This document shows, in pieces, positions 12,241-52,475 of a stretch of 64,000 bases of DNA; positions within the stretch are counted from its first letter, which is position 1, and each line of letters opens with the position of its first letter. The notes under the pieces were generated by a model, which saw nothing but the letters and a program-made list of their open reading frames with translations, was not told the DNA's origin and ran no database searches. This stretch comes from Betaproteobacteria bacterium (lineage in GTDB: Bacteria > Pseudomonadota > Gammaproteobacteria > Burkholderiales > SG8-39). The DNA lies in contig SCTX01000106.1 in assembly GCA_004298385.1 (NCBI GenBank), forward strand, positions 1-64,000, in the 5' to 3' direction. Both the position numbers and the translations under genes were made by a program.

Positions 12241-13365
12241 CTAAGCACCCCACTCCCGCCACCCCGCCAGCAGCGGAAAATAAAGCCCCAGCATCGCTCC
12301 GTCGCCTTGCGCGAGTGCCCGGGCGTAGCGTTCGAGTTGAACTTGGTATCGCTCCTTTTCCCGATCGAGGAAGCCGTCCACGTTCGTGCCTTCGTGCCCG
12401 CTCGCCTTGTAGTCCACGATCCAGCGCTTCCCGTCGCGGTCGGTGAAACTGCGGTCGATGACCAAGTTGCGGCGCTCGCCGTCGAGCATGGCCGTGAGGC
12501 GGTATTCATTGCGCGCGTCCTGCTGCGGCCCGAGCAGCCAACGCCCGCGTTCGTCGGCGAGCGCGCTTGCGAGCGCTTTGGCGACGCGTGCGCTGGCGGC
12601 GGCAAGCTGCGCTTCTTCCACGCCACGCGCGGCGAGTTCGTGGTGGAAGACATCGCGCATGGTCTCAACACGCGCCGCGCTCCAGCCGTGCAATTCACCT
12701 TCGGCGATTCTCTGCAGCCAGCGATGCACCACGCTGCCGACGTGGCGCGCGGTTTCGCCCACCCAGGAGTATTCGACGTCGTCCTGCGAACGTGCGGTTT
12801 CGCTGGCGGCGTTCCACGCGAGCGCGGGCGGCGCAACCGGCGGGGACCAGCCAGACGCCAGGCGGCGCAGCGACTGGTCGAGGACTGCGTCCCCGTCCGC
12901 GCCCTCGGTCGCCAACGGCGCCGGCGCTGTCGCGGCAGCGCGTTGGAACTCGCTCGCCACCACCGGCCAGAGCTTGGCCAGCAGGCTGCGCGATTCGGGA
13001 GTGCGCGCCGTTTGCACCTTGTCCTCGACCAGCAGCCGCGTTTCGCCGAATAAATGCAGGCGCTGCTTCGCGCGCGTGGCCGCGACGTAGAGCAGGCGGC
13101 CGTCCTCAAAGGCTGCTTGCTCGGCGGCAAGCTGTTTGATCCACGCATAGATGGGATCGCGCTCGGCGCCGGTTTCTTCGATCGGGGCGAGGAGCAGATT
13201 CGTGTTCGCTTCCGGTCTGCGCGGATTTGACGCATCCGGCTGCGCCGGGCGTTCCATCCACAGCAAGAGCTTCTTTCCTGCGGCAGGCGGCGCCTTGCCC
13301 AGGCCGGGCACGATCACATGATCGAACTCCAGGCCCTTCGCCTTGTGCATGGTCATGATCTGCAC
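12241..13365 (-). pseudogene. Displaced C-terminal fragment of an AddA-like UvrD helicase/RecB-family nuclease (374-codon open frame)
   Basis: Starts at helicase motif QIMTMHKAKGLEFDHVIVPGLG and retains nuclease motifs (VGSVVHRWLQRIAE, WIVDYKASGHEG, QLERYARAL); roughly three quarters identical by eye to the C-terminus of the gene at 15924-19199. Confidence 0.85.
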
Positions 13366-13617
13366 CGTGAACTTAAGGGGGCGGCATGAAATTTTCTGAC
13401 GAAGCCAAGCGTGCTGCTGAAATTCTAGCCCCCCTTAGTCCGTCGACTCCAGGTAGACGATAGCAATGCCCTTTCTGGTACTCTATGTCTTGCTTATGTG
13501 GTTTCCATGTATCCATCGGCTCCCATGTCACTTTGTCGGAGGCGAAAAATACGGCCAAACGTCCGCGAGGACCAAGGCGCACCCTTCGCGTAGGCACATC
13601 CGAGGCTAGATGTCGCA

Positions 13618-13647
13618 TTGACGGGCTATTCAAATGGCGAGTACTAT
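13618..13647 (+). promoter_or_regulatory. Candidate sigma70 promoter of the retron
   Basis: TTGACG (13618-13623), 18-nt spacer, TACTAT (13642-13647); predicted start coincides with retron a1 at about 13654. Confidence 0.55.
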
Positions 13648-13653
13648 AAGTGC

Positions 13654-13815
13654 GTCTCTTAGTTGGGCTTGTTCGGTTTTCTGTTCGAATGACGCTCTTG
13701 GCCCGGTGTACAGCCAGGCCGAATTATATTGCGCGAGACTCTTTGGGCTGGTTTCCCATCCCGAGAGCTCCTCGCTCTCGGGCTGGGAAACCAGCCCACG
13801 CTCTTAGTAAGAGAC
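13654..13815 (+). ncRNA. Retron msr-msd non-coding RNA
   Basis: a1 gtctctta (13654-13661) and a2 taagagac (13808-13815) complementary; candidate branch G at 13662; small msr stems at 13672-13689 and 13697-13718; 25-bp msd hairpin 13744-13798 with one internal mismatch and loop TCCTC. Confidence 0.85.
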
Positions 13816-13858
13816 AATCGTGACACCCCAGCTCTCCCATCCGAGCAGTAAGACACTG

Positions 13859-14749
13859 ATGGGGGAGCTGGTTTCTCTTTTTCAATCCAAGAGCATTCAT
13901 ACTCGCCGAGATCGGCGACTAATCTTTGTTTGCGGCGGCTCCGTGAAACCGTATGGACGATCTTTCCGAAAACGATTTCTCAATTACGCACGAACCTCTC
14001 TCCACGATGTTCGCCTGTTTCTCGCCGAAGATGCCGCCCGAGATGTCTTCGCACATGAAAATCCATTTTTCGTAAATATTGCCGAATTTGAAACTCTGAT
14101 CAGCGAGCTTGCTGATTGCGTTGTTGTAATTCCGGAAAGTACCGGTTCAATCGCAGAACTCGGTTATTTCTCCGGCCACAAATCGATTAGAAGCAAGATT
14201 CTCGTCGTCAATGATCTTCAGTTTCAAGGTGAGCCATCCTTCCTGAATCTCGGCCCCATCGAACTCGCAAACCATCACTCCGACTACCGCCCGACCCTTC
14301 ATTTCAACTTAAAGGAGAAAGATCAGAATTTTCGCGCGATCGTTAACCAGTTAAGGCGCTTCGCACTGGAAATTCGAGGCCCCTTTGAATTCAAGAAATA
14401 TGGCCAGCTTCCTATTCGGCATCGCCTTTTTGTAATCTTTGAATTAATCCACTTATTTGGAGAAATTAGTTACGACGCCTTAGAACTCGCGGTTAGATTT
14501 GTATTTCTAGGTGGAAGATACCTAGGCGACAAACATAAACGAGAGGTACGACAACTTCTATCAATTCTCTGTGCAGGGAAATATGTACAGCGCCTCGATA
14601 ATGGCCTCCTGTTGTCGCCAGTGCCTGAAGTCAAGCCGTTTTTGGATATCAATGAATCTCTTAGGGATGATCTTCGAGTCAAGATATCTGACTTTGTCCA
14701 ACGGGTGTCAGTACGTGATCTGGCCCGGCGCAAAGGGACAACAACATGA
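13859..14749 (+). CDS. Retron effector, nucleoside deoxyribosyltransferase-like with C-terminal winged-helix-like region (type II-A, Ec86 type); ORF extends to a GTG at 13820
   Basis: RLIFVCGGSV...VRLFLAEDAARD...FETLISELADCVVVIPESTGSIAELGYFSG matches the layout of the Ec86 effector (IFLCGGDV...DIFYPEDL...VDVIILFPESPGSFTELGAFS); located between msd and RT. Confidence 0.85.
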   Translation: MGELVSLFQSKSIHTRRDRRLIFVCGGSVKPYGRSFRKRFLNYARTSLHDVRLFLAEDAARDVFAHENPFFVNIAEFETLISELADCVVVIPESTGSIAELGYFSGHKSIRSKILVVNDLQFQGEPSFLNLGPIELANHHSDYRPTLHFNLKEKDQNFRAIVNQLRRFALEIRGPFEFKKYGQLPIRHRLFVIFELIHLFGEISYDALELAVRFVFLGGRYLGDKHKREVRQLLSILCAGKYVQRLDNGLLLSPVPEVKPFLDINESLRDDLRVKISDFVQRVSVRDLARRKGTTT

Positions 14750-15699
14750 TTCTCCGCAAAATGGCCGAAGACATGAGAGTTCCCCTAGCTCATATTGAGT
14801 TGTTGGCCACAACTGCCAACCATCGTTACAAGATATACCGAATACCAAAGCGCACAGGAGGAACCCGAGAAATCTCACATCCTTCGAAGGAGCTCAAGAG
14901 CCTGCAAAGATGGCTTGCGCTTCACCTGTTTTCAAGGTTGCCGATTCACGATTCGGTCTATTCGTATCGGATCGGGGTTGGTATTCGCGACCACGCCGAG
15001 ATCCATAAGAGGGGCAATTACCTGGTTCGGATCGATCTCAAGGATTTCTTCCCTTCAATTACCTCAAAGGACGTGGCCCGCCTCCTCATTGAGAATCGAC
15101 AGAAACTTGGACAAATAATAACGGCTACGGACTTGAAAGCCATTTGCTGGATCGTCTGCCGCAATGGTCGTTTAACGATCGGGGCCCCGTCCTCTCCTGT
15201 TATTTCGAATGCGGTGCTATATGCGGTCGACGAGTATTGGTCTGTGACTTGCGAGCAACGTGGAATTACTTATTCCCGCTATGCGGATGACATTTACCTT
15301 TCAACAAACAGGCCGAACATTTTAGCCGGCACTTACGACGAAATGCGCAAAGATCTTGAAAATCGCGAATGGCCAAAATTGCAGATCAATCGGCGGAAGG
15401 TTGTGTTTACTTCCCGTAAGCATAATCGAAATGTTACCGGCCTGATCCTCACGTCGGATCGACGAGTGTCGATCGGGCACGAGAAGAAAAGACAGATCCG
15501 ATCTCAAGTCTTCAAATTTACGCAAGATCAACTCTCCGCAGAACAAGTTTCTTATCTTCGCGGATATTTATCGTTTGCTAAATCCGTAGAACCAAGCTTT
15601 CTAACAAGACTTAGAAAGAAATTTGGCGTCAGCGTGATTCATCAAATTGCGAATACTCAATCGATACAGATCAAGAAGGTTAAGGCGCGAAAGCAGTGA
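14746..15699 (+). CDS. Retron reverse transcriptase
   Basis: 317 aa; DLKDFFPSI, GAPSSPVISN, YADDIYLS, retron-specific VTG (RNVTGLIL); overlaps effector stop by 4 bp (ATGA). Confidence 0.95.
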   Translation: MILRKMAEDMRVPLAHIELLATTANHRYKIYRIPKRTGGTREISHPSKELKSLQRWLALHLFSRLPIHDSVYSYRIGVGIRDHAEIHKRGNYLVRIDLKDFFPSITSKDVARLLIENRQKLGQIITATDLKAICWIVCRNGRLTIGAPSSPVISNAVLYAVDEYWSVTCEQRGITYSRYADDIYLSTNRPNILAGTYDEMRKDLENREWPKLQINRRKVVFTSRKHNRNVTGLILTSDRRVSIGHEKKRQIRSQVFKFTQDQLSAEQVSYLRGYLSFAKSVEPSFLTRLRKKFGVSVIHQIANTQSIQIKKVKARKQ

Positions 15700-15774
15700 T
15701 GCTAGATCCTTCCTGGTTGGGGAGCCGCTATTCCAGTGACACCCTCCGCACCCAGGAATTATCAGATTTGACCG

Positions 15775-15811
15775 GGCCGGGGACCCGAACGGGGCTCAAT
15801 TCTCTCCGGCC
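15775..15811 (+). terminator. Strong hairpin 3' of the retron RT, possible transcript end (no U-tract)
   Basis: GGCCGGGGA...TCTCCGGCC with inner CCC/GGG stem between the RT and the convergent addA-like gene. Confidence 0.3.
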
Positions 15812-15923: not shown

Positions 15924-18900
15924 CTAAGCGCTCCACTCCCGCCAGCCCGCCAGCAGCGGGAAGTAGAGCCCCAGCATCGCTGGCTCAGCGCGAGCGAGTG
16001 CTTGGGCGTAACGCTCGAGTTGCGCCCGGTAGCGTTCCTGCTCCTGGTCGAGAAACCCGCCCACATTCGTGCCCTCATGGCCGCTCGCCTTGTAGTCCAC
16101 GATCCAGCGCTTGCCGTCCGTGCCGGTAAAGGTGCGGTCCATGACCAGGTTGCGGCGCTCGCCTTCGATCACGGTGGTAAGACGGTATTCGCTGCGTGCG
16201 TCCTGCTGCGGCCCGAGCAGCCATTGGCCGCGCGGGTCGGCGAGCGCATTCGCGAGCGCCCTGGCCACGCGCTCGGCCGCCGCGGCAAGCTGCGCTTCCT
16301 CGACGCCGAGCGCGGCGAGTTCGTTGTTGAAGCTCTCGTACATAGTATCGATGCGCGCCGGGTTCCAGCCTTTCAGTTCATCCTCGGCGATCCTCTGCAG
16401 CCAGCGGTGCACCACGCTGCCGACGTGGCGCGCCGTCTCGCCCACCCAGGAGTATTCGATGTCGTCGCCGACGCGGGCAGTATCGGCAGGCGGCGTCCAG
16501 GTCGCGGCGGGTGGCGGAGCAGGTGATGACCAGTCCGAAGGCAGGCGGCGGAGAGCTTTGGAGGTTTGCCCCTCGGCCGAGGCCTCCTGCCGCGAGCGGG
16601 TAGAGGGAGCGTCAGTTGCATCTTCCGCGGGTGGCGACATGGCAGCGGCCTCGCCGAACTCCGCTTTAACCGCCGGCCATAGCTTTTCCAGCAGTGAACC
16701 GCGAGCGGGCGGTTTTAGTTCGGTCGCGTCGTCCTTGGCGCTGAGTTTCACGTCGCCGAGCAGGTGCAAGTGCTTCTTCGCGCGGGTGGCGGCGACGTAG
16801 AGCAGGCGCCCAAACTCGTGGGCCCCTTTCTCCTTGTCCAGACGGCGGATCGTTTCGTAGATGGGGTCCTTGTCGCTGCCGGTCGGGTTGATGGGCGCGA
16901 GGAGCAATCCGCCGGCCTGGCCTGCGCGCTCCATCCACATGAACAACTGGCGCTCGTCGCGACCGGTGCCCGAGCCGAGGCCGGGGACGATGACGGTGTC
17001 GAATTCCAGGCCCTTGGCTTTGTGGATGGTCATGATCTGCAGGTGATCGCTCGCTGCGAGGTCGGGTTGCGCGTAGAGCTTGGCGAGGCTCGCCTCGAAC
17101 GAGGCGGGATCGGTGATGGCGCCGGCTTCCTCGGACTTCTCCAGGTGGTCAAGATAGATGTCAGCGTCTTCGAGATCGGTGTCGTCGGCCACACAGGCGG
17201 GACCGCCAAGGGCGAGCCACACGCCTTCCACCTGCTCCCGCAGACTTGAACGAAAACGCCGGGCGAAGCACGCGGCGAGCGCAGTGCGCGTGCGTTCCAG
17301 GCGCGCGCGGCCGTCGACGGTGAGCGCCGCGAGGCGGCGCGCGTCGTGCATCAGTTCCCACACGGTCCGTCGGCTGGAGATCGGCTCTGGTAGCTGGTCT
17401 ACGGGCAATTCCTGTTCGATCAGATCTGTCCCAGCAAGCGCGTGCAGGTCGGCGAGCGTGAGCCCGCACCAGGGCGCGCGCAGCACGGCGAGCCAGGCGA
17501 GGCGGTCGGCCGGGTGGGCGATGGAGCGCGTCAAAGCGAGTAGGTCCTGCACCACCGGGCGGTGGCCGAGCGGCTCGATCTCGATGGCGCGGAACTTGAG
17601 GCCGGCGGCGCGCAGCGCCGGTACGATGGCTTCGAGATGGTTCTTGGCGCGCACCAGCAAACCGATGGTGCCCTGCGGATCCTCGGCCTGCGCCTCGCGA
17701 ACCAGCGCGACGACCTGCTCAGCTTCCGCGACAGCGTCGCCGTTGAAGACGGGATGCACCCTCACCGCATCGGCCTCCGCCGGGTGCACCGGCTCCGAAG
17801 GCGAGTATGGCACCGCGCCCGCGGCGACGTCTTCCTCCTCGGGCATCAACTGCGCGAACGCATTGTTCACCCACTCGACGATGTCAGCCTGTGAACGAAA
17901 GTTGGCCGAAAGCGTGAGCGGCTCCAGCGCTACGCCGCCTATGCCTTCGTGGCGCGCCTTGAGAAACAGGCCAACCTCGGCCTCGCGGAAACGATAAATC
18001 GACTGCATCGGGTCGCCCACCACGAACAACGTGCGCCCATCGCCCTGCTCCCAGCCTGCGGTGAGCTTCTCCAGCAGTTCGTACTGCGTGAAGGACGTGT
18101 CCTGGAATTCGTCCACCAGGATGTGGCGGATGCGGTAGTCGAGCGACAACAGCAGGTCGGTGGGCCCCTCGTCGGTCTCGAGCGATGTGAGTGCGCCCTG
18201 CGCGATCTCGACGAAATCGGCCTCGCCGTGCGCGGCGAACACGATCTTTAGCTGCGCGACGGCAAGGGGTAGCAGGCGCGTAATGGCGCCGAGCGCCTGC
18301 CACTGCTCCTCGGAGTAGCGCGCCGGCGGCAGGGACTGCACTGCGAGCAGTGCTTCGAGTAAGTCGTCGCGCTCCGCGAGTGTGTCGTAGAGCGGATGCT
18401 TTTTTCGCCAACCGCCGGCCTTGGTGAGCAGCGATTCAGCGAAGGCGATCCACGCGCCGGCATCATCATCCGCGGGCGCCTCCAGGCCGGACACGAGCAG
18501 CGCGCGCGCGCGGCGCACGGCGTCGGCCCGCAAGCCTGCGAGCGCGGCCTCGAGCGCAGCGCGGTCTCCGGCGCGGCCGTGCTGCCTCATCCAGTGGTCG
18601 CGGCGCGCGAGCATGCCGGCGATCAAGGACTCGGCGGTGGCGACGTTGTTGTCCAGATGACCGAGCAGGCGCGCGACGTCGGCAGCGGCGGCTTCATCGG
18701 CGCCTTCGAGTGAATCAAGCGTAGCACGCGCGGCTTCGAGGTAAAGTTGCGACGCGTCCTCCACGCTCTCCGGCTGCGCGCCGAAGCGCGCGAGCACTGG
18801 CATCTGGCGCGTGAGCGAAGCGCACAGCGCATCTATGGTCTGGATGCGCAGGCGCGCGGCGACCGTCTCGAGATTCCAGCCGAGCTTGTCGTTGCGCACC

Positions 18901-19199
18901 AGCGCCGCGCGAGAGAGATCCCAGGTCAGGGCACGGTGACCCGCATCGGGGCGTGGCGTGTCGCGCGCGGCGGCAAGCGCTTCCAGCACGCGCTTCTTCA
19001 TCTCGGCCGCGGCTTTCTTGGTGAAAGTGACGGCGGCGATTTCCTCCGGGCGCTCCACGCGCGCGAGCAGCACCAGCATGCGCTGGATCAGGAGCTCGGT
19101 CTTGCCCGAGCCTGCAGGCGCTTGCACGATGAACGAGGTATCCGGATCGAGTGCGCGGCGGCGCTGTTCGAAGTCGGGGGCGACGGCGACGTTACTCAT
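15924..19199 (-). CDS. addA: AddA-like UvrD-family DNA helicase / RecB-family exonuclease; 5' extension of the ORF to 19544 is not used
   Basis: From MSNVAVAPDFEQRRRALDPDTSFIVQAPAGSGKTELLIQRML (Walker A) to the nuclease motif VDYKASGHEG; start overlaps the addB-like stop. Confidence 0.9.
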   Translation of the reverse strand: MSNVAVAPDFEQRRRALDPDTSFIVQAPAGSGKTELLIQRMLVLLARVERPEEIAAVTFTKKAAAEMKKRVLEALAAARDTPRPDAGHRALTWDLSRAALVRNDKLGWNLETVAARLRIQTIDALCASLTRQMPVLARFGAQPESVEDASQLYLEAARATLDSLEGADEAAAADVARLLGHLDNNVATAESLIAGMLARRDHWMRQHGRAGDRAALEAALAGLRADAVRRARALLVSGLEAPADDDAGAWIAFAESLLTKAGGWRKKHPLYDTLAERDDLLEALLAVQSLPPARYSEEQWQALGAITRLLPLAVAQLKIVFAAHGEADFVEIAQGALTSLETDEGPTDLLLSLDYRIRHILVDEFQDTSFTQYELLEKLTAGWEQGDGRTLFVVGDPMQSIYRFREAEVGLFLKARHEGIGGVALEPLTLSANFRSQADIVEWVNNAFAQLMPEEEDVAAGAVPYSPSEPVHPAEADAVRVHPVFNGDAVAEAEQVVALVREAQAEDPQGTIGLLVRAKNHLEAIVPALRAAGLKFRAIEIEPLGHRPVVQDLLALTRSIAHPADRLAWLAVLRAPWCGLTLADLHALAGTDLIEQELPVDQLPEPISSRRTVWELMHDARRLAALTVDGRARLERTRTALAACFARRFRSSLREQVEGVWLALGGPACVADDTDLEDADIYLDHLEKSEEAGAITDPASFEASLAKLYAQPDLAASDHLQIMTIHKAKGLEFDTVIVPGLGSGTGRDERQLFMWMERAGQAGGLLLAPINPTGSDKDPIYETIRRLDKEKGAHEFGRLLYVAATRAKKHLHLLGDVKLSAKDDATELKPPARGSLLEKLWPAVKAEFGEAAAMSPPAEDATDAPSTRSRQEASAEGQTSKALRRLPSDWSSPAPPPAATWTPPADTARVGDDIEYSWVGETARHVGSVVHRWLQRIAEDELKGWNPARIDTMYESFNNELAALGVEEAQLAAAAERVARALANALADPRGQWLLGPQQDARSEYRLTTVIEGERRNLVMDRTFTGTDGKRWIVDYKASGHEGTNVGGFLDQEQERYRAQLERYAQALARAEPAMLGLYFPLLAGWREWSA

Positions 19200-21930
19200 C
19201 GCTGCGCTCGTTAATGCGGCACAGCGGCTGCATGCCGCAGAACTGGCAGGTGTCGTCGCCGTGCTTGGGAGCCACGCGCGCGTCACCCGAGGCGAAGCCC
19301 TGCCCCAACGCGGCCAGCTCGCGCCGCCAGCCTTCGACAAGGTTCTCCCAGGAGCCGTAGCCCTTGGCGAGCGCGCTGCGTTGGTCGCCGATGGTTTTGA
19401 CGCCCGGCAAGAGATCTTTGTCGCGCGCGATGCCCTTGAATTCCAACTCTCCTGTTTTGACGCGCGCGAAAGCGACGGCCGCGATGTTCTTTTCGCTGCC
19501 GATTGCGTAAAGCGGCAGTTGCGGCTCGTCCGGCCGGGTGCCAAGCCATGCCGTGACGCTGGCTTCGCCCGTCTTATAGTCGAGAATGACGTGGCCGCCC
19601 GCGCCCAGTTTGTCCATGCGGTCGAGCTTGGCGTTCACCGCAACGCCACCGAATTGCACGACGCGTTTTTCTTCCACTGCGGCCACTTCGAAAACCGGGC
19701 GTTGCTTCTCGAATTCGAGCCAGTCGCGCGCGAGTGCGGCGAGGCGCGAGCGTTCCCGCTCGGCGAAGCGGCCTTGCAGCGCTTCGGGTTTCCAGCGGCG
19801 CAGCCTGCCGATGGCTTCATCCGCGCAGTGAGCGAGTAGCGTGGCAAGATCATCCGTGCTGATCGCATCAAGCGCGGCTTTGCCGCCGAGCGCCGTCCAG
19901 ACCGCGGCGAGCACCGAGTGCAGCAGCGTGCCACGGTCCCTTGCGTTTAGACCGGGCTGCGGCGTCTCCAGTGCTTCGGTGCCGAGGCGATGCGCGGCGA
20001 AGGCGCGGAACGGGCATGCCGCCTGGTCGCGAAATATGCCGGTGCCACCCGAGTGCGGGCCTGCATCCGCGCCCAGGCGTGCGAGCTCAGGCGCCTTATC
20101 GTCGGCGATGCGCTCCTCGCGCCGCGCACGGTGGATCGCGTCGCGCAGCTTGTCGTAGACCGGAATGCCGAAATCTTCGAACATCGCTCCGGGCACGGCC
20201 GCAATCAGCGGGCTCGCAGAAAGTTCGCGGTCGCCCTCGCGTAGCGGATGGCTGAACACCACTTCCGGTGCCGCGGCCAGCCAGCCTGCGGTGATGCGCC
20301 GGTCGAGCTCGATCGATCCGGCGGCGTCCGCCTGGGGCACTCCCGCTTCGCGCTGCAACTTGATCGGAATGAACGGGTTAGGCCGCACGGGAATGGGCCA
20401 TGCGTCGTCGGTGAGTCCCATCACCCACAGGTGGTCGAATTCGAGTCCGGCGGATTCGAGCACGCCGAGTATCTGCACAGGGACATCGGCGGCTTCGGGC
20501 TGGAACAGCGTGTCGGCGGTCACGCGCGCCAGACGCCGGCAGGCATCAGCATAGCCCATGCGCCCGGCGACGGCATCGAGCGCGGCGAAGCCCGCCACCA
20601 CTTCGTGCCATTTTTTCAGCGTCTGGTATTCCGTCGAGTCTAAGCCGCGGCCCTTGTCGAGAAACCCGAGAAGACCGAGCGCCGCCGAGATCGCCTTCGC
20701 CCACTCCGAAGGCCGCTTCGCGCCGAACAGATTTGTCTTGCGGAATTCGGCGAGCTGCGACAGCCGCTCGGCGAGGACGGGGCAACGCGGCGCGCCGCGC
20801 ATGTCCATCAGGCGCAGCAGGGCTTCCAGCGTGAGGGTCGTGCCGGCGCGCGCGCGCAACACGGCATCGAGTCGCGCGCGAGCGGTCATTTCCGCCTCGC
20901 TGCCCGCGAAAAACGGCGAACGAAGCAGCCGGCTCGCACGATTGAATTCGATCTCGCGCCCGGCAAGCTGCAGCGCGAGCAACGCGTCATGTACCAGAGG
21001 GTATTGATTGAGAGAGATGCCAATCGATATGTTGAAAGGCAGCGTTTGCTTCGACACCCCGGGCAGTGAATGGTCCGGCTGCATGATCGATGCAAAAATG
21101 CGTTTGACCGTGCTGCGCGCCTGCGCGAGGCCGGGAACGACGACGCCGATATGCGCCTGCGGATTGGCCTCCAGCCGCGCGCGCGCCCAAGTGGCGCTAG
21201 CGAGCATTTCGTCGCGCTCGGCGGTGAACGCGATGCGCGAGCAGCGCCCCGCGTCTCCAGCCGGGCCAGTCGCAAGCACTTCGATACCCACGGCTTCCAG
21301 GGCATCAAGCAACGCGCGCTGCTGAGCAGTCATAATGTCAAAGCCATAGCGGACCAGGGTCTTTGGTTTGGTGAGGGCCTGATGCGCGAGCAGCGGAATC
21401 ACTGCGTCGGGCAGCCGTGCCGCGTCGATGTAGCCGGATTTTCGGCTGGAACGCGCGCAGGCGCGCTCGTAGCGCGCCGCCCAGTCGAGAAAGGCCTTCG
21501 CATCTTCGTTCGCAGCAGCGGCCTTCAGGCGCGGCATCAGGCACCCGGCGTGCGCGAGCTGCCAGGCTTCGCGGCATTGCGTTGCGGCAGACGAGGCCGA
21601 GAGCAGAGTCTCTGCCAGTTTGGATGCGCGGATCGCGTCCTCCCACAGTGATTGCTCCTGCGCCGGCGTGAGCAGGATAGGCAGAGCGGACGCGAGTTCG
21701 GAGTAGAGCGCGTCTTCATAGCAGCGCTGGACGAAAGCGGAGTACGACAGGATGTCGGCCGATTCCCAGGCGCTGCGGCCTTGCGCGGCCTGGGCCGCAT
21801 CGAATTCGCGCTCGAGCGATTGCGCCAGGCGCTGGTTGGGGGTGATTACTGTGACACCGCCGGCGAGTCCTTCGGCTAAGCGCGCGAACAGTTGCGCTTT
21901 GGATAACGCTGCGTAAGGTTCGCCGGACAT
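19192..21930 (-). CDS. AddB-like PD-(D/E)XK nuclease ('probable DNA repair protein' family)
   Basis: From MSGEPYAALSKAQLFARLAEGLAGGVTVITPNQRLAQSL; C-terminal nuclease GGHVILDYKTGE and Cys-rich CQFCGMQPLCRI. Confidence 0.85.
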   Translation of the reverse strand: MSGEPYAALSKAQLFARLAEGLAGGVTVITPNQRLAQSLEREFDAAQAAQGRSAWESADILSYSAFVQRCYEDALYSELASALPILLTPAQEQSLWEDAIRASKLAETLLSASSAATQCREAWQLAHAGCLMPRLKAAAANEDAKAFLDWAARYERACARSSRKSGYIDAARLPDAVIPLLAHQALTKPKTLVRYGFDIMTAQQRALLDALEAVGIEVLATGPAGDAGRCSRIAFTAERDEMLASATWARARLEANPQAHIGVVVPGLAQARSTVKRIFASIMQPDHSLPGVSKQTLPFNISIGISLNQYPLVHDALLALQLAGREIEFNRASRLLRSPFFAGSEAEMTARARLDAVLRARAGTTLTLEALLRLMDMRGAPRCPVLAERLSQLAEFRKTNLFGAKRPSEWAKAISAALGLLGFLDKGRGLDSTEYQTLKKWHEVVAGFAALDAVAGRMGYADACRRLARVTADTLFQPEAADVPVQILGVLESAGLEFDHLWVMGLTDDAWPIPVRPNPFIPIKLQREAGVPQADAAGSIELDRRITAGWLAAAPEVVFSHPLREGDRELSASPLIAAVPGAMFEDFGIPVYDKLRDAIHRARREERIADDKAPELARLGADAGPHSGGTGIFRDQAACPFRAFAAHRLGTEALETPQPGLNARDRGTLLHSVLAAVWTALGGKAALDAISTDDLATLLAHCADEAIGRLRRWKPEALQGRFAERERSRLAALARDWLEFEKQRPVFEVAAVEEKRVVQFGGVAVNAKLDRMDKLGAGGHVILDYKTGEASVTAWLGTRPDEPQLPLYAIGSEKNIAAVAFARVKTGELEFKGIARDKDLLPGVKTIGDQRSALAKGYGSWENLVEGWRRELAALGQGFASGDARVAPKHGDDTCQFCGMQPLCRINERSDE

Positions 21931-22028
21931 GGTGGCGTATGATAATCCACGAGCGTCAGTCACGTGAGCGAGGTAAGCCGATTGAATACGAACCTGGAAT
22001 TCCCCGCTGTCCTCCCAGGCACGCGAAC

Positions 22029-23288
22029 ATGACTGCCGAATCCGCACGCATAAACCGCCTCACGCTGCGTTTCACCGACGCGGGCCTGGAGAAGGCTTTT
22101 GCCGAGGAGCAGGCGAAGAAATCCCTGCGTCCGGTTCGAATCGCGCTCGTCTGCGCCGGTGCGCTGACGGTCGTCATATGGCCCGTGGCCATTCAGACAG
22201 CTCCTGCTGTTCAAGAGCACATGCCGAGAATCGTTGTCACGGTTCTGGCCACGCTTGGCCTCTGCTTTGCCTTGACGCATACGCAGGTTTTTCTGCGCCG
22301 GCATCAGTGGATAATGCTCGCCCTCGCGTGTGTGCTGTCGTTTGGAATGACAAATGGCATCATGCCACGATATCCGCCGCAGATACTGGAAGCACGCGGC
22401 TTTTTCCCAATGGCGATTCAATTGTTCACCATCTACGGCGTTTTTCGCCTGCGTTTTCCCGCCGCGGTGGCCGGCGGATGGATCAGCATGGCGATGTACC
22501 TTGCCTTGCTTCGCGCGCTCGGATTGCTGCCCGAAAGCGCGTTCTTCGTGCACGCGTCCACACTCATGGCGGCGAACCTTTGGGGCATGCTGATTTGCTA
22601 CCAGATGGACCTCGCCATCCGGCGTGCGTTCCTGGCAATGCGCGACGTCGCCGCCGAGCACGAGCGCTCCGAGCAGCTGCTGCTCAACATCCTGCCGGCG
22701 GACCTTGCGAAAGAGTTATCGGAGACCGGCAGCGCGCGTCCGGCCCGGCACGAGTCCGTCACGATATTGTTTACCGATTTCAGTGGGTTCACGCAGACGG
22801 CATCGGCAATGCCCGCGGACCGCATGGTTGCCGAATTGAGTGACATATTCGCGGCGTTTGACGACATCTGCGATGAACTGGGCGTCGAAAAGATCAAGAC
22901 CATCGGCGACGCCTACATGGCCGCCGCCGGTTTGCCCAAGCCCTGCGCGGATCATGCCCAGCGCTGCGTACGCGCGGGCCTGCGCATGTTGGACTATCTT
23001 GAGCAGAGGAACCGAAAAGCGCCTTTCAAGTGGTCACTTCGCGTCGGCGTTCATTCGGGTCCGGTGGTCGCGGGTGTCGTCGGCAAGCGCAAGTATGCCT
23101 TCGACATCTGGGGCGATACCGTCAATATCGCGTCGCGAATGGAAAGCGCCGGCGAGGCCGGCCGGGTCAACGTTTCGGCCTACACCTTCGATCTGATTCA
23201 GGATGAGTTCGCCTGTGAATATCGCGGCAAGGTGGGCGCCAAGGGCAAGGGCGAGATCGATATGTACTTTGTCACTGGTGCACGATAA
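22029..23288 (+). CDS. Class III adenylate/guanylate cyclase with N-terminal membrane domain
   Basis: Hydrophobic N-terminus; ESVTILFTDFSGFTQ, TIGDAYMAAAGLP, VGVHSGPVVAGVVG, YAFDIWGDTVNIASRME. Confidence 0.9.
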   Translation: MTAESARINRLTLRFTDAGLEKAFAEEQAKKSLRPVRIALVCAGALTVVIWPVAIQTAPAVQEHMPRIVVTVLATLGLCFALTHTQVFLRRHQWIMLALACVLSFGMTNGIMPRYPPQILEARGFFPMAIQLFTIYGVFRLRFPAAVAGGWISMAMYLALLRALGLLPESAFFVHASTLMAANLWGMLICYQMDLAIRRAFLAMRDVAAEHERSEQLLLNILPADLAKELSETGSARPARHESVTILFTDFSGFTQTASAMPADRMVAELSDIFAAFDDICDELGVEKIKTIGDAYMAAAGLPKPCADHAQRCVRAGLRMLDYLEQRNRKAPFKWSLRVGVHSGPVVAGVVGKRKYAFDIWGDTVNIASRMESAGEAGRVNVSAYTFDLIQDEFACEYRGKVGAKGKGEIDMYFVTGAR

Positions 23289-49602: not shown

Positions 49603-51921
49603 TCACTTGCTTTCCATCACCCACACACCGTTCCAGTCACCGCCCGGGGGATGCTCGCCGAGATAACGGCAACGCTCGACGTAGAGCTTGGCCGCCTTGT
49701 CCGCCGGGTTCATAGCCATCACTTCCGAAAATTGCTTTACCGCATCGTTCCACTTGCCCTGGCGATACTTGACGAGCCCGTCGCGGAAATAGCCCAGCGC
49801 GTCGATCAGGCGCGGGTAGGTTTCGTCGGTATGGTAGTCGAGTATTTCGTGGATCGCGACCGGCTGGGTCTTGCCCTTGACCACCACCAGATCCACCTCG
49901 CGCGCGCGGTAGGTGCCGCGCAGCTTGGCATAGGTAAACTCGCTCACCAGAATGTGGGTGCCATACTGCTTGCACGCCGACTCCAGGCGCGATGCAAGGT
50001 TCACCCCGTCGCCGATGATGGTGTAGTCCATCCGTTTCTTCGAACCGATATTGCCCGACACCACCATGTCGGTATTCAGGCCGACGCCTATGTCGATCGG
50101 CATCTTGCCCTCGGCAACGCGCTGGACGTTCCATGCCTTCAACGCGCGCAGCATCGCGATCGCGGCGCGCACCGCCCGGTCCGCGTCGTCCTCGTGCCCG
50201 ACGGGGATGCCGAAGGCGGCCATGATGGCGTCGCCGATGAACTTGTCGAGCATGCCCTCTTCATGCTGGATGCAGTCGACCATGAGGGTGAAATATTCGT
50301 TGATCAGGGCCACGGTTCCCTGCGCGCCCAGTTGCTCGGTGATGGTGGTGAAGCCGCGAATATCGGAGAACAACACAGTTGCCAGCACGCTCTGGCCGCC
50401 GAGCAGCTCGGCGCCGCTCGCCACCAGCCGGTCGGCGATGCCCGGATCCATGTAGCGCGACATGGTCGATTTCATGCGCTTTTCGCTGCTGATGTCCTCG
50501 ATCAGCAGCATCGAGCCGAGGCGCTTCTTCTCCATGTTGAATAAGGGCAGGATAGTCACATTGGCCGAGACTTTTTCGTCGCCGACCGCGAGTTCCGCAT
50601 CCATGAACATGTCGGCGGCTGCGGTTTCGTCGACCTGCTTCAGCCTTTCCAGGATCCAGTCGTTCGCGCCACCGAAGAACTCCGCCACTTGGCGCTGCAG
50701 GATCTGCTCCGGACTGACCTTCAGGATTTTCAGCCCGGCGGCGTTGCAGGTGGCGATCTTGCCGCCGTCGTCCAGCGTGACCACTGCGTTCGACATCGAC
50801 TCCAGCATCGCCTCGTTGTAGTTTTTCATGTTGTGGACGTCGGCGAACAGCTTGGCGTTCTCCAGCGCGATCGAAATCTGCGCGGTGAAGGCGCGCAGGC
50901 GTGACTCGTCTTCGTTGGTGAACGGCCCGCCGTGCTTGTTCAGAACCTGGGTAACGCCGATGGTCTTGCCGTGCTTGTTGACGATGGGAACGCATAGAAT
51001 GGAGCGTGTGAAAAAGCCGGTCTTCTTGTCGAACGCGGGATTGAAGCGCAGGTCGGCATAGGCGTAGGGAATGTTGATCGCCTTGCTGGTGGTAAACACC
51101 GCGCCCGCGATGCCGAGGTGGTTGGGCAGCCGGATCTGCACCGACGCGAGCCCCTGTCCGACCTCCGACCACAGCTCGTGGGTCTTGTCGTCGTTGAGAA
51201 ACAGGGTCGAGCGCTCGGCGTTGAGCATGCGCGTCGCCTCGCCCATCACCTTCTGCAGCAGCGAGCCGAGCTTGATGTCCGCGGTCATCTCCGACACCAC
51301 ATCGACGAACTCCATCTCCTGCTTGCGCACCGCCTTCATGCGCTCGATGAATACCGCGCCCTGCAGCGCCAGCGTTCCCTGGGTGGTCATCGCCTCGAGC
51401 ACGGCGAGATCGCGCTTGGTGAAGTCGCCCTTCTTTTTGTTCAGGGTCTGCGCCACGCCGATGATTTCGCCTTTCACCGTCCTGATCGGCGTGCACAGGA
51501 TGTTGCGGGTGACAAACCCCGTCTGCTCGTCGACTGTGCGATTAAACCGCGGATCCGAATAGGCATCGGCAATCAGGACCGACTCCCCGGAAGTAAACAC
51601 GTAGCCGGCGATGCCGCTGGTGTTCAAAAGGCGAATCTCGTGCTTGATATTTCCCTGAGCCACGCGCGAATACAACTCGTTGGTTTCCGCGTCGTTGAGA
51701 AACAGGGTTCCACGCTCGGCCTCGAGTTCCGCGGTCGTCATCTCGACCAGAATTCTCAGCACATCGTCGAGCGAGTCGTAGGCCGCCATTTTGCGCGACA
51801 CCTCGAGCAGCAGCTCGACCAGCTTCAGCCGCCCGCGAACCGCCGTGCTTGCCTGCTTTTTCCGCTGCTTGCGCCGCCCGGCCAGGTGCGTGATTTCGGC
51901 AGTGTGTTTGGGTTGCTCCAT
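49603..51921 (-). CDS. GAF-GAF-PAS adenylate/guanylate cyclase
   Basis: Two GAF domains (AERGTLFLNDAETNELYS; AERSTLFLNDDKTHELWS) and class III cyclase (ATVLFSDIRGFTTI, IGDGVNLASRLE). Confidence 0.95.
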   Translation of the reverse strand: MEQPKHTAEITHLAGRRKQRKKQASTAVRGRLKLVELLLEVSRKMAAYDSLDDVLRILVEMTTAELEAERGTLFLNDAETNELYSRVAQGNIKHEIRLLNTSGIAGYVFTSGESVLIADAYSDPRFNRTVDEQTGFVTRNILCTPIRTVKGEIIGVAQTLNKKKGDFTKRDLAVLEAMTTQGTLALQGAVFIERMKAVRKQEMEFVDVVSEMTADIKLGSLLQKVMGEATRMLNAERSTLFLNDDKTHELWSEVGQGLASVQIRLPNHLGIAGAVFTTSKAINIPYAYADLRFNPAFDKKTGFFTRSILCVPIVNKHGKTIGVTQVLNKHGGPFTNEDESRLRAFTAQISIALENAKLFADVHNMKNYNEAMLESMSNAVVTLDDGGKIATCNAAGLKILKVSPEQILQRQVAEFFGGANDWILERLKQVDETAAADMFMDAELAVGDEKVSANVTILPLFNMEKKRLGSMLLIEDISSEKRMKSTMSRYMDPGIADRLVASGAELLGGQSVLATVLFSDIRGFTTITEQLGAQGTVALINEYFTLMVDCIQHEEGMLDKFIGDAIMAAFGIPVGHEDDADRAVRAAIAMLRALKAWNVQRVAEGKMPIDIGVGLNTDMVVSGNIGSKKRMDYTIIGDGVNLASRLESACKQYGTHILVSEFTYAKLRGTYRAREVDLVVVKGKTQPVAIHEILDYHTDETYPRLIDALGYFRDGLVKYRQGKWNDAVKQFSEVMAMNPADKAAKLYVERCRYLGEHPPGGDWNGVWVMESK

Positions 51922-51926
51922 GGCGC

Positions 51927-52475
51927 CTACTTTACCCGATCGGCCGGCGCTGCCGGCAGTTGTTCGCGCAGCTCGCGCAGCGTCGCCTGCAGTTGTACGA
52001 TTTCCGCGTGATCCTGCGCGCGCGCCGCCGCAACCGCGCTCTGCTTCGCGAAATTTGCCAGTTCCAGCGCCTCGCGCAAGGAAGCCGCGGTCGAGCGCAA
52101 TTGCGCGATTTCGTCCTGCGCGGCGATGATCGCCTGGCGCACGGCCGTCTCCTGCGCGAGGCGCGCCGCCTCCAAGGCATCGCGCAAGGCCCCGACGCTG
52201 GCTTTCAACTGCTTGATCTCGTCCAGATTGGCGGACTGGGCGAGCCTTGCGGCCTCGTCGCGCCTGATCGGCCACTCCTGCAGTTCCTCGCGCAGCGCGG
52301 TGATGGTCGCCTTCAACTGCGCGATTTCGGCGTTCGCCCCGGACACTGCCTGCCGCACCGCCTCGCCGGTATCGCGGCGCGCCTGTTCCAACTCCTCGCG
52401 TAGCGCGAACACCGTCATCTTCAAATCGCGGATCTCGGCAAGATCGAGGGCGGTGGTTTCCGTTTCGGCGATCAT
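51927..52475 (-). CDS. Coiled-coil protein made of 36-aa tandem repeats
   Basis: 182 aa: four 36-residue units beginning EIRDLK/EIAQLK/EIKQLK/EIAQLR plus a partial fifth EIVQLQ; 5 bp from the cyclase start. Confidence 0.8.
   Translation of the reverse strand: MIAETETTALDLAEIRDLKMTVFALREELEQARRDTGEAVRQAVSGANAEIAQLKATITALREELQEWPIRRDEAARLAQSANLDEIKQLKASVGALRDALEAARLAQETAVRQAIIAAQDEIAQLRSTAASLREALELANFAKQSAVAAARAQDHAEIVQLQATLRELREQLPAAPADRVK

What the first reader, a model, noticed from the sequence alone, without database searches (positions are those of the whole stretch)
13618..15699. Complete type II-A (Ec86-like) retron
Seen: promoter-like TTGACG-N18-TACTAT, an msr-msd-like structured RNA, an ORF with nucleoside deoxyribosyltransferase-like motifs, and an RT with YADD and VTG, all on the + strand with a 4-bp effector/RT overlap. 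Established: the order msr-msd, NDT-like effector, RT is that of Retron-Eco1 (Ec86), a type II-A anti-phage abortive-infection system. Inference: this is an intact defence retron in a betaproteobacterium-like genome. It is embedded among housekeeping genes rather than in an obvious defence island.
Basis: partly seen in the sequence, partly recalled or inferred. Interest (0 to 1): 0.85.

Follow-up and report, generated by a model that had tools for sequence, protein, structure and literature searches.

The report
Type II-A retron beside swapped addAB
This is a complete, intact anti-phage retron of a known kind (type II-A, the Retron-Eco1/Ec86 kind), ordinary as a system, but it sits at the edge of a block of foreign DNA that replaced the host's own DNA-break-repair genes (addAB) and left a piece of the old gene behind.

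Summary
The effector (GTG 13820-14749) matches PADLOC NDT_II-A (1e-50), NCBIfam 'retron St85 family effector' (above cut-off) and, as a profile, the Ec86 effector over nearly its full length (6e-49). The RT (14746-15699, ATGA overlap) matches RT_II-A (2e-106) and the St85 RT family. The ncRNA (13654-13815) has a1/a2, a priming-G motif, two msr hairpins and a long msd hairpin, with covarying pairs against relatives. By sequence the RT is nearer to solved Ec83/Ec78 RTs than to Ec86, so 'Ec86-like' holds for architecture and effector only. The retron occurs in 1 of 98 family genomes; a near-twin (RT 83%, effector 76%) lies in another family at an unrelated locus, so it moves horizontally. Also seen: a2 overlaps the effector's weak Shine-Dalgarno, and a covarying hairpin with a U-rich tail lies in the effector's first codons. 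msDNA production and defence remain untested. New member of a known kind.

The parts
13618..13647 (+). promoter: TTGACG - 18 nt - TACTAT
   Evidence: same hexamer pattern and 18-nt spacing upstream of a1 in L084 and L089
13654..13815 (+). msr-msd ncRNA, a1 to a2
   Evidence: fold z = -8 for 13650-13885; conserved in L084, L089, L086; no Rfam match at gathering score
13654..13661 (+). a1 (GUCUCUUA), pairs with a2
   Evidence: 8 of 8 pairs; U-A to C-G compensatory change at the second pair in L089 and L086
13662..13662 (+). predicted priming (branching) guanosine in UUAG
   Evidence: position right after a1 as in Retron-Eco1 (PMC11754653); invariant in the four aligned retrons
13665..13697 (+). 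msr hairpin P2
13698..13722 (+). msr hairpin P3 (nearly identical GCC-GG...GCCAGGC core in four retrons)
13744..13798 (+). msd hairpin P4, two 25-nt arms 96% complementary, 5-nt loop
   Evidence: one T-A to A-T compensatory change against L084
13808..13815 (+). a2 (UAAGAGAC); AAGAGA 13809-13814 lies at Shine-Dalgarno distance from GTG 13820
13828..13871 (+). 14-bp hairpin followed by a U-rich tail, inside the first codons of the effector (possible attenuator)
   Evidence: z = -3.4 here and -4.7 in L084; G-C to A-U compensatory change at 13831/13868, both changes synonymous
13820..14749 (+). NDT-like effector with C-terminal DNA-binding region (St85/Ec86 family), GTG start
14746..15699 (+). retron reverse transcriptase, YADD, VTG
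15924..19544 (-). intact addA-like helicase-nuclease gene, divergent allele class (shared with relative G006)
   Evidence: Pfam UvrD-helicase, UvrD_C, PDDEXK_1; about 79% nt to G006, about 71% to the class of the nearest relative
19192..22047 (-). addB-like gene, mosaic: foreign up to about 21600, native-like beyond
   Evidence: PDDEXK_1; identity to G011 jumps from about 62% to 84% near 21600
12241..13367 (-). truncated 3' end (374 codons, open) of the native addA, next to native downstream genes
   Evidence: 83% nt to G011 and G004, 71% to the intact copy in the same window

Best explanation
An intact type II-A retron, acquired horizontally. A sigma-70-like promoter makes one transcript of ncRNA, effector and RT (inferred). 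The RT binds msr hairpins P2/P3, primes from the 2'-OH of G13662 once the a1:a2 duplex has formed, and copies the P4 region into msDNA (inferred from Retron-Eco1). RT-msDNA holds the NDT-like effector in an inactive complex; when phage functions modify or degrade the msDNA the effector is released to cleave a nucleotide substrate (NAD+ for Retron-Eco1) and the infected cell stops growing (inferred from the family). The retron lies in a divergent addAB block that replaced the native genes, leaving the 3' 374 codons of native addA as a scar (shown by sequence comparison; the recombination route is inferred).
For: Family hits for both proteins. All eleven residues invariant among 11 II-A effectors are kept, including E113, which aligns with the residue that is Ala in chain 8qbl_G. 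ncRNA anatomy and covariation. Gene order and ATGA overlap. Near-twin retron in another family of the same order at another locus. Effector absent from the other 97 family genomes. GC 46-53% against 57-72% around it. Two addAB allele classes: window intact with G006 79%; G011, G013, G009 78-84% among themselves; 69-71% between classes; the remnant belongs to the second class. Flanking genes 93-95% to G011.
Against: Nothing tested contradicts it. The ncRNA matches no Rfam family, so it rests on anatomy and four relatives. The 'NAXXH' motif reads HAEIH here. The structure model failed (pLDDT 37), so the effector fold rests on profiles only. The genome is a fragmented draft (169 contigs); an assembly chimera at 13367 is not excluded by these tools.
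Confidence: 0.93

Rival explanations
1. Decayed or inactive retron: the parts look right but the system no longer works in this host.
For: Unusual HAEIH in place of NAXXH; the effector uses a GTG start with a weak, possibly sequestered Shine-Dalgarno.
Against: No frameshift or stop; substitutions against the near-twin in the first codons are synonymous and stem changes are compensatory; HAEVH and the GTG are shared by the near-twin, so they are not recent damage.
Confidence: 0.05
2. The retron and the divergent AddAB form one functional unit: the retron watches AddAB (as Retron-Eco6/Ec48 was reported to watch RecBCD, from memory) and was transferred with it.
For: They are adjacent and lie in the same foreign block.
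Against: The near-twin retron in G057 is not near its addA; G006 has the same addAB class without the retron effector; L089's neighbours do not include addAB. GC differs between retron and addAB.
Confidence: 0.06
3. The retron inserted by itself into an already duplicated addA 3' region, and the addAB replacement was a separate earlier or later event.
For: Two other genomes carry other cargo between addA and a partial 3' copy of addA (G035, G057), so such partial duplications arise without a retron. GC of the retron differs from addAB.
Against: No genome was found with this addAB block and scar but without the retron.
Confidence: 0.4
4. Not a retron: a group II intron RT or other bacterial RT next to an unrelated gene.
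For: RVT_1 and the group II RT model also match.
Against: The St85 retron RT model scores far above the group II model (328 against 47 bits), and the NDT effector and msr-msd are present.
Confidence: 0.01

Closest known systems
Retron-Eco1 (Ec86), type II-A
   Same: ncRNA-effector-RT order; NDT-like effector with DNA-binding C-terminus over nearly the full length; a1/a2, priming G after a1, P2, P3, long P4 hairpin; presumed catalytic Glu kept
   Different: RT is nearer to Ec83/Ec78 RTs than to Ec86 (205 against 120 bits); different msd sequence; effector GTG start 4 nt after a2; hairpin inside effector codons
NCBIfam retron St85 family (NF038232 effector, NF038233 RT)
   Same: both proteins above the curated cut-offs (163.5 against 100; 327.9 against 235 bits)
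   Different: nothing found by these models; note that the RT family name is also given to RTs of type I-A (PtuAB) retrons
Retron-Asa1, -Squ1, -Hch1 (type II-A from environmental bacteria, PMC12548924)
   Same: type II-A, NDT effector
   Different: Asa1 and Squ1 are set off by a phage GATC adenine methyltransferase, and Asa1 has its site in the reverse-transcribed part; the msd hairpin here has no GATC
unnamed retron in G057 (L084:5633-7678)
   Same: RT 83%, effector 76%, ncRNA nearly identical
   Different: other family of the order, other locus, not beside addA

Membership tests
Type II-A retron | retron-clade RT with YADD and VTG | tested here: met
   RT_II-A 354 bits, best of all PADLOC RT models; NF038233 above cut-off; tree places it with other II-A RTs L084 and L089
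Type II-A retron | NDT-like effector with C-terminal DNA-binding domain | tested here: met
   NDT_II-A 1e-50, NF038232, Ec86 effector 6e-49 over its residues 7-300 with the profile of 11 relatives
Type II-A retron | msr-msd ncRNA with a1/a2 and priming G upstream of the effector | tested here: met
   Rfam has no match
Type II-A retron | order ncRNA - effector - RT on one strand | tested here: met
Type II-A retron | NAXXH motif in the RT | tested here: inconclusive
   reads HAEIH at residues 83-87; HAEVH in the near-twin
Type II-A retron | msDNA is made | not testable with these tools
   needs cloning and a gel
Type II-A retron | effector-dependent phage defence | not testable with these tools
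   needs phage challenge
Ec86-like RT in the narrow sense | RT closest to Ec86 among solved RTs | tested here: not met
   Ec83 205 bits, Ec78 196, Ec86 120
Defence island | other defence genes nearby | tested here: not met
   PADLOC scan of ten further ORFs of the window gives only generic class III cyclase matches and one marginal hit; Pfam of flanking genes. Not every ORF was scanned

The most novel reading that the evidence does not exclude
In this branch of type II-A retrons effector expression is controlled in cis by the ncRNA. a2 doubles as the effector's Shine-Dalgarno, so the a1:a2 duplex needed for reverse transcription hides the ribosome site, and a hairpin with a U-rich tail just downstream thins out effector transcripts relative to ncRNA. 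A second part: the 3' end of addA is a recurrent landing site for defence or toxin-antitoxin cargo.
Probability: 0.2. Interest if true: 0.5.

Novelty: new member of a known kind. Interest (0 to 1): 0.33.

Why it matters
As a retron it adds an intact member, with a defined ncRNA, from an environmental betaproteobacterium-like lineage. The more useful points are (1) a readable trace of how a defence retron enters a genome, beside an exchanged addAB locus, itself a phage-facing nuclease, with a scar of the old gene; and (2) a testable idea that the ncRNA that makes the antitoxin (msDNA) also limits translation and transcription of the toxin.

Tried and rejected
Rfam at gathering and permissive thresholds: only chance miRNA-type hits to the hairpin. 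Exact-pattern and RT-alignment scans of viral contigs: nothing. First genome-contig scan with the RT alone: nothing. AlphaFold of the effector with two sequences: pLDDT 37, discarded, no fold search made. Idea that the retron travels with addAB as a pair: weakened because the near-twin and L089 are not next to addAB. Idea that the effector starts at ATG 13859: rejected, because the codons upstream keep their frame and have a homologue in L089. Idea that flanking direct repeats mark a mobile element: only short, chance-like repeats besides the addA homology. No paper found on a retron effector Shine-Dalgarno overlap (open-licence papers only). Mestre 2020 and Bobonis 2022 were not held.

Full report
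What was checked. The window lies on contig C144 (64,749 bp) of a 3.5-Mb draft genome. ORFs at 13820-14749 and 14746-15699 overlap by ATGA. The second is a reverse transcriptase (Pfam RVT_1) whose best PADLOC model is RT_II-A (1.7e-106, 354 bits; RT_I-A follows at 304), and it passes the NCBIfam cut-off for the St85 retron RT. The first matches no Pfam family but matches NDT_II-A (1.2e-50), NF038232 'retron St85 family effector' (163.5 bits, cut-off 100), and the solved Ec86 effector (3e-17 alone; 6e-49 over nearly its full length with a profile of 11 relatives). E113 aligns with the glutamate that is alanine in chain 8qbl_G, so the presumed active site is kept. By sequence the RT is closer to the solved Ec83/Ec78 RTs than to Ec86; in a tree of 14 RTs it groups with two other type II-A retrons (97/95 and 100/99 support).

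The ncRNA. 13650-13885 folds far better than shuffles (z = -8). a1 13654-13661, G13662 in UUAG, P2 13665-13697, P3 13698-13722, P4 13744-13798 and a2 13808-13815 follow the Retron-Eco1 plan, where the priming guanosine is immediately after a1 (PMC11754653). The near-twin L084, and the more distant L089 and L086, form the same elements. The second a1:a2 pair changes U-A to C-G in two of them, and one P4 pair changes T-A to A-T in L084. The promoter pattern and the 18-nt spacing recur in L084 and L089.

Two features of the leader. First, GTG 13820 starts 4 nt after a2, and the only Shine-Dalgarno-like stretch is AAGAGA inside a2 (13809-13814), which is 81-99% paired in the predicted ensemble. 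In L086 the a2 sequence AAGAGGA likewise lies just before the start; in L089 it does not (a separate AAGGAAG precedes ATG). Second, a 14-bp hairpin (13828-13871) followed by UUUCUCUUUUUC lies in the first codons; its one variable stem pair against L084 is a G-C to A-U compensatory change with both changes synonymous. In L080 and L094 a terminator-like hairpin with a T-rich stretch lies between a2 and the effector. I infer, without proof, an attenuator that keeps effector below ncRNA.

Spread. No other of 98 family genomes has the effector; 7 of 399 order genomes do (the window's own included), among them G057, whose retron is 83% (RT) and 76% (effector) identical at an unrelated place. GC is 46-53% against 57-72% in the neighbouring kilobases. 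This is horizontal movement.

The surroundings. Tail-to-tail with the RT lies an intact addA-like gene (15924-19544, -), followed upstream by addB. [quoted passage not shown] In relatives of the genus addA falls into two classes: G011, G013 and G009 (78-84% to each other) and G006; between classes identity is 69-71%. The window's intact addA belongs with G006 (79%); its remnant belongs with G011/G004 (83%), and stands next to the same small gene and glycogen phosphorylase that follow addA in G011. The rest of the compared flanks resemble G011 at about 80-95%. Identity to G011 rises again near 21600, inside addB. So about 8.3 kb (13367 to about 21600), holding retron, addA and most of addB, is foreign and replaced native addAB, leaving the scar. 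Whether retron and addAB came together or in two steps cannot be decided here. Partial addA 3' copies after an intact addA also occur in G035 (an unidentified ORF between) and in G057 (PIN-domain toxin, its presumed antitoxin and an HTH gene between).

How it most likely works. By family, RT-msDNA keeps the NDT-like effector inactive; interference with msDNA releases it. For Retron-Eco1 this means filaments that hydrolyse NAD+ (PMC12405507). Two other type II-A retrons are triggered by a phage GATC methyltransferase (PMC12548924); the msd hairpin here has no GATC, so that particular trigger is not predicted. None of these steps was tested here.

Verdict. It is a new member of a known kind with an informative genomic scar.

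Noticed in passing
window 12241-13367 and 15924-19544; L027 4136-6016; L028 5446-6958: Partial 3' copies of addA behind an intact addA in three genomes of three genera, each with different cargo between (retron; unidentified ORF; PIN toxin-antitoxin and HTH gene).
   Followed up: partly
window 19192-22047 (-): addB looks like a mosaic gene: identity to the nearest relative jumps from about 62% to 84% near 21600.
   Followed up: yes
window 15700-15800; L084 7680-7835: Imperfect repeats of about 25 nt (like CAGATTTGACCGGGCCGGGGACC), by eye two behind the window's RT and three behind the twin's RT; function unknown.
   Followed up: partly
L080, L094: Terminator-like hairpins with T-rich tails between ncRNA and effector in other type II-A retrons.
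   Followed up: no
L092 1447 (phage 4LV2017 record KY271398): The deposited start of the retron effector gene appears to lie inside the msr-msd RNA and is probably wrong.
   Followed up: no
window 13368-13610: About 240 bp between the addA scar and the retron promoter match nothing else fetched and occur once in the genome.
   Followed up: partly
window 49606-52275 (-): 890-aa protein with a class III nucleotide cyclase domain (matches Pycsar cyclase models); probably an ordinary signalling cyclase.
   Followed up: no
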